From the NCBI GenBank assembly GCA_020060385.1, contig JAGVAH010000078.1:1-36131 (forward strand): a DNA stretch of 36,131 bases, written 5' to 3'. The notes beneath the pieces are model-generated. The model was given only the letters and a program-made list of their open reading frames with translations, was not told the origin of the DNA and made no database searches. The position numbers and the translations under genes were made by a program. Positions 7,394 to 23,178 of this stretch are shown here, one piece after another; the first letter of the stretch is position 1, and each line of letters starts with the position of its first letter. This stretch comes from Syntrophobacterales bacterium. GTDB taxonomy: Bacteria > Desulfobacterota > Desulfobaccia > Desulfobaccales > 0-14-0-80-60-11.

Positions 7394-7418
7394 GTCAGCC
7401 TCTTAAAAATAAAAATTT

Positions 7419-7516
7419 ACCACAGAGACACGGAGGACACAGAGGGACACAGAGAAAATCTTTTACCTTGGCGGCTCTGCCGCCAAGGTAAACATATATC
7501 TCTGTGCCTCTGTGGT
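7419..7516. repeat. 98-bp nested palindrome between argJ and the GyrI-like gene
   Basis: Outer arms 7419-7435 (ACCACAGAGACACGGAG) and 7500-7516 are inverted copies with two mismatches. Inside is a perfect 11-bp hairpin, ACCTTGGCGGC (7465-7475) with GCCGCCAAGGT (7479-7489) and loop TCT, extendable by A/T pairs. The arms carry short tandem units of GGACACAGAG. A degenerate relative lies at 8201-8270 on the other side of the next gene, so this is a dispersed family. Confidence 0.85.
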
Positions 7517-7561
7517 GAATCTTTTTTCTTGCCGCAACTGCGGCGCTTAATCCCCGTCCTA

Positions 7562-8176: not shown

Positions 8177-8200
8177 GATGATGGCCTCAAAATAAAATCT

Positions 8201-8270
8201 ACCATAGAGTCATGAAGGACACAAAGGAGCACCAAGAAAAAAGTAGCCTTGGGGGCCAAGCCGCCAAGGC
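8201..8270. repeat. Degenerate second copy of the 7419-7516 repeat
   Basis: Reading TACCATAGAGTCATGAAGGA onward, the sequence follows the left arm and centre of the 7419-7516 element with scattered changes, including the tandem GGACACA unit and the inner hairpin GCCTTGG (8246-8252) / CCAAGGC (8264-8270). The right outer arm is missing. The two copies bracket the GyrI-like gene in the same orientation. Confidence 0.7.
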
Positions 8271-8307
8271 AATTAAGATATCGATTTCCAAGCCACCCAG
8301 AAAGGAA

Positions 8308-8826
8308 TTATTTTAATTTCGCCAAATAAATTAGCTCTTGGCAAACATTGCGGAAATCTGGATTTAATTTGTCAATATCCTCTCTATGTGCATTATATCT
8401 TCGACTATGAGCAGATTGATCTCCAATGGTTTTGAATGAATGTAATGCCCTCTTTGTATTTCGTCCAAGATTCCAGGAAGGTTCTTGTAACATCTTAGAA
8501 ATTAACTCAGAAAGGCGGTAAAAGTCACCAGTTCGTAAATCAATTATTTTTTCAGAGATGTTATGGCCCTCAAAACATTCAATTATTAATGTTTCTATTA
8601 GTCGTCGCATCATAACAGCACATGCATCAAACCACCCTTGTTCGTAAGTTCCATTTATTTGGAAAACTACTCGTTCGATATAACCTCTGGTGCCAATAAT
8701 AATATTATGAGGTATTATATTTTGACTAAGTGGTTTTTTCCCTTGAGATGGAGGCACATAATGTATAGGAGCTTCAGCTTCTATTCCCTTTATAATTTCT
8801 AAAGCTTTGAGCGCAATAGATTTCAT
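8308..8826 (-). CDS. DUF4145-like protein, second gene of an AT-rich two-gene cassette
   Basis: A 172-residue protein of unknown function. The middle (ACAVMMRRLIETLIIECF) and the later block (LHSFKTIGDQSAHSRRYN) resemble the DUF4145 signature, an all-helical domain often attached to restriction endonucleases and other defence proteins. The GDQSAH stretch is where family members carry a conserved Gly-Asn and His. No membrane segment or catalytic nuclease motif is visible. It begins six bases after the DUF5343 gene, with no clear ribosome site of its own, so translation is probably coupled. Base composition is far more AT-rich than argJ or secA, suggesting transfer. The domain match is moderate; the function is not known. 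Confidence 0.6.
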   Translation of the reverse strand: MKSIALKALEIIKGIEAEAPIHYVPPSQGKKPLSQNIIPHNIIIGTRGYIERVVFQINGTYEQGWFDACAVMMRRLIETLIIECFEGHNISEKIIDLRTGDFYRLSELISKMLQEPSWNLGRNTKRALHSFKTIGDQSAHSRRYNAHREDIDKLNPDFRNVCQELIYLAKLK

Positions 8827-8832
8827 TTATTA

Positions 8833-9495
8833 TTATTTCTTATATATATGCTTAGCCATACTTTCAAATATCTTATCTATCTGATCTGGGCTAGCATCAG
8901 AAGATATATGAATTTGTAAGTTTATATTAAGATTAGGAAAATCAGGGCTTATTCTTTGCGTAGAAGGTTCATGCGCCTGTTCGACATGTTGTCTTGGTTG
9001 GTCAGGTTTTGGTTGAGCAATTTTAATTTTTTTAGCAGGCTGCTCTTTCGGTTTTCTTTCTGGTCTTTTCGAAACATCCGCTTCTGATAAGGCAATGTAA
9101 AAAGAAGACATTTTTTTGACGGCACTTTGGCCAAGTCCAGTATGGATACTAAACCATCGCTCGACAGCCCCTCTATCTTCAGAAGGGGAATGAACCGCTT
9201 CAACTAATTCACTCGGATAAATCTGCTCTACTATTTTTTTACATACATCTGTATAATGCCCATCATCTCTCCATGATTTCGCCAATTCCTGGTTTGTCTT
9301 CCCTTCTTCGTCAATTAGGCCGATTAATTTCAGATTGGGAATTATATTATTTTTAGCTGAGGATGGATCAATTGTTAAGGTAGTAGCTAAATAACTATCA
9401 GTCACAATACCTGGAATGCTCTGTTTAAATTTCTCTCTCAATTTCCACCAGGTTGATACAGCGAGCAATGGATATTGCCTCTTTTCGTCTACCAT
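8833..9495 (-). CDS. DUF5343 domain protein, first gene of an AT-rich two-gene cassette
   Basis: A 220-residue protein. The N-terminal two thirds fit DUF5343: YPLLAVSTWWKLREKFKQ, TDSYLATTLTID, NLKLIGLIDEEGK, SWRDDGHYTDVCKKI, DRGAVERWF and KMSSFYIALSEADV, a winged-helix-like layout. A Lys/Pro/Gln-rich linker (about 146-180) leads to a short C-terminal module, LNINLQIHISSDASPDQIDK, then FESMAKHIYKK. Function is not established; it may be a regulator or adaptor. I use ATG 9495 rather than GTG 9504, since an AGGGTG lies upstream at a fair distance. Six bases separate it from the DUF4145-like gene. The AT-rich leader 9505-9620 probably holds the promoter. Confidence 0.75.
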   Translation of the reverse strand: MVDEKRQYPLLAVSTWWKLREKFKQSIPGIVTDSYLATTLTIDPSSAKNNIIPNLKLIGLIDEEGKTNQELAKSWRDDGHYTDVCKKIVEQIYPSELVEAVHSPSEDRGAVERWFSIHTGLGQSAVKKMSSFYIALSEADVSKRPERKPKEQPAKKIKIAQPKPDQPRQHVEQAHEPSTQRISPDFPNLNINLQIHISSDASPDQIDKIFESMAKHIYKK

Positions 9496-9677
9496 AATCT
9501 GCACCCTTTTATATTTTTAAAAATCAATCTAAAAGAAATTTTAAAAAATTTCCAATAAATATTTTTAGGTTAAAAGTTAATCTTTATCGGGCAAGTCTTC
9601 AGGGAGATTTATTAAGCAAATAGGTCCTCGTGCAGACTATGGAAAAAAACCTTATATGGGGGTTGGGAGGGGAGTTT

Positions 9678-12583: not shown

Positions 12584-12592
12584 TTACACAAT
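12498..12592. repeat. Large nested palindrome with four GTGTAA(A)G half-sites
   Basis: Inner arms 12518-12538 and 12551-12571 are inverted copies matching at 20 of 21 bases (ACAAACTAG, then T or C, then TTGTGTAAAGC) around a 12-base spacer. Outer arms TTGTGTAAAGG (12498-12508) and CCTTACACAA (12583-12592) form a second inverted pair, nearly concentric with the first. The right outer arm overlaps the last codons of the Fic gene. It may be a mobile-element relic, a multi-site operator or a large terminator-like hairpin. Confidence 0.8.
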
Positions 12593-13696
12593 TGATTTTC
12601 CTTCCACTAGATTGATTAGTTCTGGAAACACTAATAGAGCAGACCGGCGGCCACTGGCTGGGCGCAAGACCTTGAGAATTCCAACATTTTTGAGTTGGCG
12701 AATTAGCACGGAGGCTGTCATCTTGGTTGGGATACGAGAAATAGCCGCGAAGTCTGATCCCTCAAAAATTGGCCTTGAGAAAATTGCATCCAACGCCTGA
12801 ATAGCAAATTGAGAATGGGTGGTTTCCACAACCTTAGCTTTCATTTCTTCATATAAGTGCAGAATCCCTCGAACCTTATCGATATTGATTGCCGCTTGCT
12901 CAACTACTGCAGTTAGGAAAAATTGAATCCATCCATTCCAATCCTGCAATTGGGATATGGCTTGCAACCGCGTATAATAGGCCTCTCGATTGGCCTCTAA
13001 ATATGCGCTAAGGTAAAACATCGGGCTTGACAGCAATTTCTTTGCGAACAAGAAAAGAGGCACAAGCATACGCCCCATTCTTCCATTACCATCCAAAAAT
13101 GGATGAATAATCTCAAATTGAGCCTTGACGATTGCTAAATGCACTAGGACATCTTTCTCGTCGAAATGCATATACTTTTCCCAGTTATCCAACATATCAT
13201 CAAGCCGATCTGGTGATGGAGGCACAAAAGTGGCCTTTTCGATAGGATATCCCGGAGGGGCAATATAGTTTTGGGTCCTGCGAAACTGTCCCGGTGTTTT
13301 ATCTCGTCCACGCACACTATCTAAAAGGATGCCATGAAGATCTTTAACTAGATTCAGGCAAAGAGGGCGTTCTCGTAAGTATTCTATTGCCTTCCACATG
13401 GCTGCACGGTAGTTGATGATCTCCTGAATATCCTCATGTTTGGATGGCTCTGCATGTTCCCGCGGACTGGCTTCGAATTCCAGAACTTCTTCCATGCTGG
13501 CAAGAGTTCCTTCGATCCTTGACGACAATACTGCTTCCTGAGTGGTAAGTGGCGAAAGAAAAACCCTAGGATTCGGGATACCCTGTAACATACCATCGTA
13601 TCTAGCTAATGCAGCGTTAGCTTGACCGATCAAGGAAACATGAGCTGCCCATTCAATCAAGTTAAGAGGAAGGGTGTCTGGTACAAATGGTTCCAT
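12584..13696 (-). CDS. Fic-domain AMP-transferase with C-terminal winged helix
   Basis: A 370-residue Fic protein that should transfer AMP (or a related group) from a nucleotide to a protein target. The N-terminal Fic_N region carries the inhibitory motif SSRIEG (58-63, matching S/T-x-x-x-E-G), so this is a class II self-inhibited enzyme. The active site is HPFLDGNGRMGR (198-209, catalytic His198). The C-terminal part (after about residue 290) has an HTH-like segment, FAAISRIPTKMTASVLIRQL, suggesting self-regulation or DNA binding. Start ATG 13696 has AAGGA upstream. It follows the acetyltransferase gene by 51 bases and is more AT-rich than that neighbour, which hints at later arrival. Targets are unknown. 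Confidence 0.92.
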   Translation of the reverse strand: MEPFVPDTLPLNLIEWAAHVSLIGQANAALARYDGMLQGIPNPRVFLSPLTTQEAVLSSRIEGTLASMEEVLEFEASPREHAEPSKHEDIQEIINYRAAMWKAIEYLRERPLCLNLVKDLHGILLDSVRGRDKTPGQFRRTQNYIAPPGYPIEKATFVPPSPDRLDDMLDNWEKYMHFDEKDVLVHLAIVKAQFEIIHPFLDGNGRMGRMLVPLFLFAKKLLSSPMFYLSAYLEANREAYYTRLQAISQLQDWNGWIQFFLTAVVEQAAINIDKVRGILHLYEEMKAKVVETTHSQFAIQALDAIFSRPIFEGSDFAAISRIPTKMTASVLIRQLKNVGILKVLRPASGRRSALLVFPELINLVEGKSIV

Positions 13697-22532: not shown

Positions 22533-22586
22533 CGTTCCCAAGCTGAGCTTGGGAACGCACTTGGACGCCAAGCTGTGCTTGGCGTC
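22533..22586. repeat. REP pair at the 3' end of the transposase gene
   Basis: Two perfect hairpins in series: CGTTCCCAAGC / GCTTGGGAACG (22533-22543, 22547-22557) and GACGCCAAGC / GCTTGGCGTC (22564-22573, 22577-22586), each with a 3-base loop. The second overlaps the stop codon of the transposase gene. Confidence 0.9.
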
Positions 22587-23118
22587 ATAACTCCATGACA
22601 TCAATTTCCATTACTGCATCAAAACCCAGATAATTCCTGGCACTGGAATAAAGCCAATCTTCCGCTTTTTCTACCATACCGATTCTCACCGGATTATGAT
22701 GAATATATTCTATCTTTTGCCTGAGCATCTCTTCTGTAATAATCTGCTTTGGATGAAACCCTTCCTGCCATACCTGGTAGTCACTATCGGTTTTATGTTT
22801 TAATTTGTAATACTTTAATTGGTTCAGAAGCCATAATTTCTCTTCTTTCTGGGCCAGATTTATGATCTTTCTGGCGGTGTGGCGCTTTAAGTCCTTAATC
22901 GTATTGGCAAGATTATCCCCAGAGACTAATAGATGCAAATGATTATCGAGGATTGCATAGGCAAATATCTTGAATCCTTTATTGGCACGGCAATAATTCA
23001 ATGAGTCTATGAGGACGTCAATATATGCTTTTCTGGTGAAAACCGGAATCCATTCAACAATAGTGCAAGTGATGAAATATATTTGACCTGCATCGTTAAT
23101 CTTATACCGGGTTCTCAT
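22585..23118 (-). CDS. REP-associated tyrosine transposase (RAYT, Y1/HUH family)
   Basis: A 177-residue single-strand transposase of the IS200-like Y1 superfamily, RAYT branch, thought to mobilise REP hairpins. Landmarks: YFITCTIVEWIPVFTRK, the HUH pair in AILDNHLHLLVSG, LKRHTARKIINL, and the C-terminal IEYIHHNPVRIGMVEKAEDW that carries the candidate catalytic Tyr and the family signature. REP pairs lie on both sides. I use ATG 23118; an upstream TTG start at 23139 would be inside the REP. It is more AT-rich than its neighbours and splits the interval between the ABC-type gene and the M16 genes. Confidence 0.9.
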   Translation of the reverse strand: MRTRYKINDAGQIYFITCTIVEWIPVFTRKAYIDVLIDSLNYCRANKGFKIFAYAILDNHLHLLVSGDNLANTIKDLKRHTARKIINLAQKEEKLWLLNQLKYYKLKHKTDSDYQVWQEGFHPKQIITEEMLRQKIEYIHHNPVRIGMVEKAEDWLYSSARNYLGFDAVMEIDVMEL

Positions 23119-23129
23119 TCGGTTATGTT

Positions 23130-23178
23130 CCGAAGCCAAGCTTCGGGTCCAAGTGCGTTCCCAAGCGCAGCTTGGGAA
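23130..23178. repeat. REP pair at the 5' end of the transposase gene
   Basis: CCGAAGC / GCTTCGG (23130-23136, 23140-23146) and TTCCCAAGC / GCTTGGGAA (23158-23166, 23170-23178). The second shares its stem with the first hairpin on the other side of the gene; the first is a variant stem. Confidence 0.85.

What the first reader, a model, noticed from the sequence alone, without database searches (positions are those of the whole stretch)
8308..9495. AT-rich two-gene cassette of uncharacterised proteins (DUF5343 + DUF4145-like)
Two genes six bases apart, AT-rich against GC-rich neighbours, sit between a degenerate palindromic repeat and the conserved secA gene. The first has a winged-helix-like DUF5343 region and a separate conserved-looking C-terminal module; the second resembles DUF4145, a domain often attached to restriction and other defence proteins. 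The pairing, composition and placement fit a mobile accessory or defence module with no described function. The domain matches are from memory; the defence role is inference.
Basis: partly seen in the sequence, partly recalled or inferred. Interest (0 to 1): 0.6.

Follow-up and report, generated by a model that had tools for sequence, protein, structure and literature searches.

The report
Mobile DUF5343–HEPN two-gene defence candidate
Next to secA this bacterium carries a recently inserted pair of genes, a DNA-binding-type protein with a small C-terminal tail module and a HEPN-fold protein, which recurs as a unit across bacteria and phage-like contigs, often inside anti-phage systems, and is probably an infection-triggered growth-arrest system.

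Summary
Window 8308-9495 (minus strand) encodes a 220-aa DUF5343 protein and, 6 bp downstream, a 172-aa DUF4145 protein, at 34-37% GC against 60-66% around them. Seven relatives with the same GyrI-like/secA junction lack the pair. In same-genus genomes the gap is a palindromic repeat, of which the window keeps only the left arm. DUF4145 belongs to the HEPN superfamily, and the predicted structure best matches HEPN proteins. The pair recurs in four other families of the phylum and three viral contigs. Searching by the DUF5343 protein alone gave 17 intact copies. All 17 are followed, within -17 to +11 bp where measured, by a gene that is HEPN by profile (16) or by motif (1), from at least three families: DUF4145, Ymh and Swt1. 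What all 17 share is a 35-aa C-terminal strand-helix module; one has an unrelated N-terminus. At least six sit in or beside defence genes (type I and II R-M, type 3 BREX, TIR). PADLOC lists the DUF5343+Swt1 form as untested candidate PDC-M34, so this is a new HEPN-swapped variant of a listed kind. Best reading: a winged-helix sensor/inhibitor holding a HEPN effector that stops growth on infection. No function has been tested, and the canonical HEPN Arg is replaced.

The parts
8833..9495 (-). Gene 1: DUF5343 protein, 220 aa (PADLOC PDC-M34A-like)
   Evidence: Pfam E 1e-5; PDC-M34A E 7.5e-12
9070..9468 (-). Predicted winged-helix N-terminal domain of gene 1 (residues ~10-142)
   Evidence: AF2 block pLDDT mostly about 88-94; best Foldseek PDB hits are mostly winged-helix regulators but none significant (E 0.2-1.5)
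8938..9069 (-). Disordered, hypervariable linker (residues 143-186)
   Evidence: pLDDT <50 at 148-186; 18-25% identity to the three closest homologues
8836..8937 (-). C-terminal strand-helix module (residues ~187-220), shared by all 17 intact HEPN-paired homologues
8308..8826 (-). Gene 2: DUF4145 HEPN protein, 172 aa
   Evidence: Pfam E 4.3e-6, above cut-off; predicted fold best matches HEPN structures, 2hsb prob 1.00, TM 0.78 by target length
8407..8433 (-). HEPN motif region K132-x2-G135-D-x2-A139-H140; His, Gly and Ala invariant in 14/14, canonical Arg position is Gly
8827..8832 (-). 6-bp gap; also 6 bp in three other families
9496..9639 (-). AT-rich region upstream of gene 1, probable promoter region (inferred); part of the insertion
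   Evidence: homology to a relative's secA terminator region resumes at about 9640
8197..8282 (.). Left arm and central hairpin of a palindromic repeat; right arm missing, marks the insertion edge
   Evidence: comparison with complete repeats in G392, G427, G257

Best explanation
The pair is a horizontally mobile, two-gene anti-phage (abortive-infection type) module. Gene 1, translated first, works as sensor and inhibitor: its winged-helix domain recognises a nucleic-acid or phage-linked signal, and its C-terminal strand-helix module docks the HEPN protein made from the same mRNA. In uninfected cells the complex is silent; when the sensor is triggered the HEPN protein is released or activated and stops growth, most likely by cutting RNA. 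Shown: the gene pair, its mobility, the conserved pairing, the exchange of the HEPN partner and the HEPN fold call. Inferred: binding through the module, inhibition, trigger, RNase activity and defence.
For: 17 of 17 intact module-bearing proteins, found by the DUF5343 protein alone, are followed on the same strand by a HEPN or HEPN-motif gene. Families: 8 DUF4145, 3 Ymh, 5 Swt1, plus one with only an RNxxxH motif (G215). The module is present in all of them, including G053 whose N-terminus shows no relation to DUF5343 (module E 9e-20; hhalign probability 0.2%). A module-only search of 395 genomes found no other convincing carriers (E <=5e-15, then 0.007). HEPN core (77-78%) and module (85-88%) are the most conserved parts, the winged helix 57-65% and linker 18-25%. 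Defence neighbours: type I R-M (G075), NgoMIV R-M (G120), Eco57I-type MTase (L045), between pglXI and brxH of type 3 BREX (G215), IIG/MTase with helicase (G237), TIR protein (G405). BxaP, a DUF4145 protein in type-3 BREX and R-M loci, protects E. coli from T4 in an abortive manner (PMC10799925). In HEPN toxin-antitoxin dyads the upstream gene is the antitoxin (PMC3710099).
Against: The canonical HEPN R-x4-6-H Arg is replaced: Gly at -5, Lys at -8, so RNase activity is doubtful for this variant. The read-through AF2 model gives no confident interface (pTM 0.41). In the window itself no known defence gene is directly adjacent to the pair. Foldseek support for the winged helix is not significant. 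Orphan DUF4145 remnants without a partner exist, which is neutral to mildly against strict toxicity.
Confidence: 0.6

Rival explanations
1. A plain type II toxin-antitoxin addiction pair: DUF5343 is a DNA-binding antitoxin that represses the operon and blocks a HEPN RNase toxin, kept by post-segregational killing, with no dedicated phage sensing.
For: Upstream regulator-like gene, downstream HEPN, close or overlapping genes; HEPN dyads of this layout are known toxin-antitoxin pairs (PMC3710099).
Against: No match on 72,556 plasmids although the positive control worked; frequent insertion in R-M and BREX loci fits defence better; no operator conserved upstream by eye.
Confidence: 0.17
2. The HEPN protein is not an enzyme but an RNA- or nucleotide-binding partner, and the pair is a two-subunit transcription regulator or sensor for neighbouring R-M or BREX genes.
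For: Missing canonical Arg; winged-helix-like partner; several copies lie in R-M or BREX loci.
Against: The window copy and others (G386, L043, L044) have no such neighbours to regulate; exchangeable HEPN families with RNxxxH-type motifs (Ymh, Swt1) argue for an enzyme.
Confidence: 0.13
3. An accessory island gene pair with a housekeeping or metabolic role unrelated to conflict.
For: No functional test exists.
Against: Patchy: 5 of 395 phylum genomes carry this DUF5343+DUF4145 form; absent from all sampled relatives in genus and family; AT-rich insert with an empty site; carried by phage-like contigs.
Confidence: 0.05

Closest known systems
PDC-M34 (PADLOC-DB candidate defence system: PDC-M34A + PDC-M34B)
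   Same: Gene 1 matches the PDC-M34A profile (E 7.5e-12), same gene order and coupling; PDC-M34B is also a HEPN protein (Swt1 family).
   Different: The HEPN partner here is DUF4145, not Swt1, and does not match PDC-M34B at all.
BxaP (DUF4145-containing anti-phage protein in type-3 BREX/R-M loci, PMC10799925)
   Same: DUF4145 HEPN domain; found in type 3 BREX and R-M loci, as relatives of this pair are.
   Different: BxaP acts as a single gene whose C-terminus has only a weak HEAT-like match; here the HEPN is separate and has a winged-helix-like partner.
HEPN-MNT toxin-antitoxin systems
   Same: Two-gene operon with regulator/antitoxin upstream and HEPN downstream; HEPN-MNT toxin structures are among the fold hits.
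   Different: The upstream gene is DUF5343, not a minimal nucleotidyltransferase.
PD-Lambda-3 B, Argonaute-associated HEPN and PD-Lambda-5 (PADLOC models)
   Same: Ymh-type partners of related DUF5343 proteins match the PD-Lambda-3_B and Aga_HEPN models; P0002 weakly matches PD-Lambda-5_A (E 0.008).
   Different: The P0002 match is marginal, and no DUF5343 partner is part of those model names.

Membership tests
PDC-M34 | PDC-M34A protein (DUF5343 plus C-terminal module) | tested here: met
   E 7.5e-12, residues 45-217; other DUF4145-paired homologues E 6e-6 to 3e-14
PDC-M34 | PDC-M34B partner (Swt1-type HEPN) | tested here: not met
   P0002 has no PDC-M34B match at E<=1; true Swt1 partners match at 1e-37 to 1e-70
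DUF4145 / HEPN superfamily | Pfam DUF4145 above curated cut-off | tested here: met
   27.1 bits against 23.1
DUF4145 / HEPN superfamily | HEPN helical-bundle fold | tested here: met
   AF2 pLDDT about 95 over most of the core; hits 2hsb prob 1.00 TMt 0.78, 2q00 prob 0.98 TMt 0.71, HEPN-MNT toxins, Csm6; all Foldseek E-values are above 0.1, with a two-protein query
Active HEPN ribonuclease | R-x4-6-H motif | tested here: not met
   His140 invariant in 14/14, Arg position occupied by Gly135, basic Lys at -8
DUF5343 (PF17278) | Score above curated cut-off | tested here: inconclusive
   26.3 against 27 bits for P0001; homologues L017 and L019 score 42.6 and 129.4 and align over full length
HEPN-MNT toxin-antitoxin | Upstream minimal nucleotidyltransferase | tested here: not met
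   Upstream gene is DUF5343
Anti-phage defence system | Protects cells from phage | not testable with these tools
   needs a plaque assay

The most novel reading that the evidence does not exclude
The 35-residue C-terminal strand-helix module is a HEPN-docking tag that defines an undescribed modular class of defence systems: different N-terminal (mostly winged-helix) sensors are joined through it to interchangeable HEPN ribonucleases (DUF4145, Ymh, Swt1 and at least one further type), and the whole plugs into R-M, BREX and prophage loci.
Probability: 0.35. Interest if true: 0.7.

Novelty: new variant of a known kind. Interest (0 to 1): 0.52.

Why it matters
It turns two domains of unknown function into a concrete, testable hypothesis: a sensor/inhibitor plus a HEPN effector, with partner exchange around one small module. 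If right, it gives mechanism and a wider definition to the untested PADLOC candidate PDC-M34, and shows how bacteria swap HEPN effectors behind a common adaptor.

Tried and rejected
Plasmid (72,556 records) and phage (50,697 records) tblastn with five and two queries gave no match, while an HsdM positive control found 3,409 plasmids, so close relatives are not common on sequenced plasmids or phages. PDB sequence searches with both alignments found nothing. NCBIfam found nothing. Viral-contig scans with the Swt1- and Ymh-type DUF5343 alignments found nothing. The single genome-contig scan returned only one truncated orphan in a cyanobacterium. The 6-bp in-frame gap suggested a read-through fusion; rejected because three consecutive TAA codons separate the genes and spacing varies elsewhere. 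The in-frame read-through was folded only as a device to look for an interface and gave none with confidence. The module profile built from DUF4145-type proteins alone separates from shuffles below the inclusion threshold for three of nine test sequences (G053_Ymh, G386b_Swt1, G405a_Swt1); the others depend on the joint alignment, so shared ancestry of the module between the sub-types is likely, not proven. No Rfam family in the window.

Full report
WHAT IS THERE. On the minus strand of the window two ORFs form one likely transcription unit: gene 1, 8833-9495, 220 aa, then gene 2, 8308-8826, 172 aa, 6 bp apart. They are 37.4% and 34.3% GC, against 60-66% for the GyrI-like gene, the argJ-like gene and secA around them. 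Pfam gives DUF5343 for gene 1 (E 1e-5, 0.7 bit below the curated cut-off) and DUF4145 for gene 2 (E 4.3e-6, above cut-off). PADLOC-DB gives its candidate family PDC-M34A for gene 1 (E 7.5e-12). Predicted structure of gene 1: a confident, mainly helical winged-helix-like domain (residues 10-140), a disordered linker (148-186) and a C-terminal module ending in a helix (203-217); the strand in that module is inferred from its sequence pattern, as DSSP assigned only the helix. Its best, non-significant PDB matches are mostly winged-helix regulators. Gene 2 is predicted as a helical bundle whose best PDB matches are HEPN proteins (2hsb prob 1.00, TM 0.78 over the target; 2q00; HEPN-MNT toxins; Csm6), again with weak E-values. 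DUF4145 is placed in the HEPN superfamily in the literature (PMC3710099).

IT IS A RECENT INSERTION. Seven genomes of the same family keep the GyrI-like gene next to secA with 124-385 bp between them, against 1552 bp here. In three same-genus genomes the 146-148 bp gap is a complete palindromic repeat (ACCACAGAG...CTCTGTGGT). In the window only its left arm and central hairpin survive (8197-8282); homology to a relative's secA terminator region resumes at about 9640, so the insert is about 1.36 kb. No pair was found in the sampled genomes of the genus and family. The nearest relatives are in other families of the phylum (G120, G386, G075). There the HEPN core is 77-78% and the module 85-88% identical, above SecA, which is 66% for G120 and 57-71% in separate segments for G386 and G075. 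This points to horizontal transfer.

THE PAIR IS CONSERVED. The DUF5343+DUF4145 pair is adjacent, in the same order, in G386, G075, G120, G097 and in three IMG/VR viral contigs. In one viral contig it lies between ssrA (tmRNA) and a tyrosine integrase, in another beside a spanin-like lysis gene (by eye). DUF4145 copies without a partner, in G224 and a cyanobacterium (L002), are 5'-truncated remnants.

THE PARTNER IS EXCHANGEABLE. Searching with the DUF5343 proteins gave 17 intact proteins ending in the same module, and one truncated copy (G140). Downstream genes: DUF4145 in 8; Ymh (PF09509) in 3; Swt1-type HEPN (PF18731 or PDC-M34B) in 5; one (G215) has only an RNxxxH motif and no profile match. 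Not every partner was scanned by Pfam: G075 and G120 are assigned by 72-84% identity to scanned ones, G092 and G386b by PADLOC models, and L043 and L045 fall 1-2.5 bits under the DUF4145 cut-off. The two genes are spaced -17 to +11 bp (not measured for G095). One protein (G053) keeps the module (E 9e-20 to a DUF4145-type module profile) but has an N-terminus with no detectable relation to DUF5343. A module-only search of 395 genomes found no further convincing carriers (the model was built from these same sequences). So what is constant is the module together with a HEPN neighbour, not the DUF5343 domain.

DEFENCE CONTEXT. Neighbours include a type I R-M operon around the pair (G075: HsdS, HsdR; HsdM-like, control hits), NgoMIV restriction enzyme and methyltransferase (G120), an Eco57I-type methyltransferase (L045), a type 3 BREX operon with the pair between pglXI and brxH (G215; the type is assigned from its gene content, brxF-brxC-pglXI-brxH-pglZ), type IIG/MTase and helicase genes (G237) and a TIR protein (G405); the truncated G140 copy lies beside a ThaI restriction enzyme. 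That is at least six of 17 intact copies; several loci were seen over short stretches only, so this is a lower bound. No formal enrichment test was run. BxaP, a DUF4145 protein of type-3 BREX and R-M loci, protects E. coli against T4 in an abortive manner (PMC10799925).

HOW IT MOST LIKELY WORKS. Gene 1 is sensor and inhibitor, gene 2 the effector, docked by the module; infection frees or activates the HEPN protein, which arrests growth. Support: order and coupling, the pattern of conservation (effector and module high, sensor lower, linker hypervariable), partner exchange and context. Weak point: this HEPN type lacks the canonical Arg of R-x4-6-H (Gly135 in its place, Lys132 at -8, His140 invariant), so ribonuclease activity is less sure than for the Ymh and Swt1 partners, which keep RNxxxH-type motifs (read by eye). 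The AF2 read-through model shows no confident contact.

WHAT IS KNOWN. PADLOC-DB lists DUF5343 + Swt1-HEPN as PDC-M34; no paper in the held library mentions DUF5343 or PDC-M34, which does not exclude subscription papers or preprints. The 2026 BREX survey reports standalone HEPN genes in BREX loci but, in the passages read, no DUF5343 partner (PMC12839542). The window pair fails the PDC-M34B criterion, so it is filed as a new variant of that candidate kind, not a member.

Noticed in passing
window 12584-13696 (-): Fic protein (Fic_N + Fic) in a second AT-rich island (GC 0.40-0.46) on the other side of secA; secA is flanked by accessory genes on both sides.
   Followed up: partly
window 22585-23139 (-): RAYT-like (REP-associated) transposase in an AT-rich stretch (by eye); may move the palindromic repeats at 7416-7530 and 8197-8282.
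   Followed up: no
L028 9784-11077, L029 9044-10307, L050 3099-4414: DUF4145-like HEPN fused to an N-terminal helical/HTH-like part, preceded by a small gene with an N-terminal strand-strand-helix motif (V.VEGS.DEIQKII) that resembles the C-terminal module of gene 1; possibly the same docking principle.
   Followed up: partly
L030 7065-8281, L049 3203-4444: Another DUF4145-like protein coupled to a short upstream gene (wHTH-like by eye; the L030 one has no Pfam match): a further two-gene arrangement.
   Followed up: partly
L088 8022-9189: DUF5343 pair inserted between pglXI and brxH of a type 3 BREX operon; its HEPN-like partner (RNECAH motif) matches no Pfam or PADLOC model.
   Followed up: partly
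window 9492-9504 and 9630-9642: Inverted repeat CCATAATCTGCAC/GTGCAGACTATGG (12 of 13), one arm on the gene 1 start codon, the other at the right edge of the insertion; operator or insertion scar, unexplained.
   Followed up: no
L090 6543-8208 (G140), with L041 1477-1704: Truncated DUF5343 (first ~71 residues, no HEPN partner) beside a ThaI restriction enzyme and a DNA methyltransferase.
   Followed up: partly
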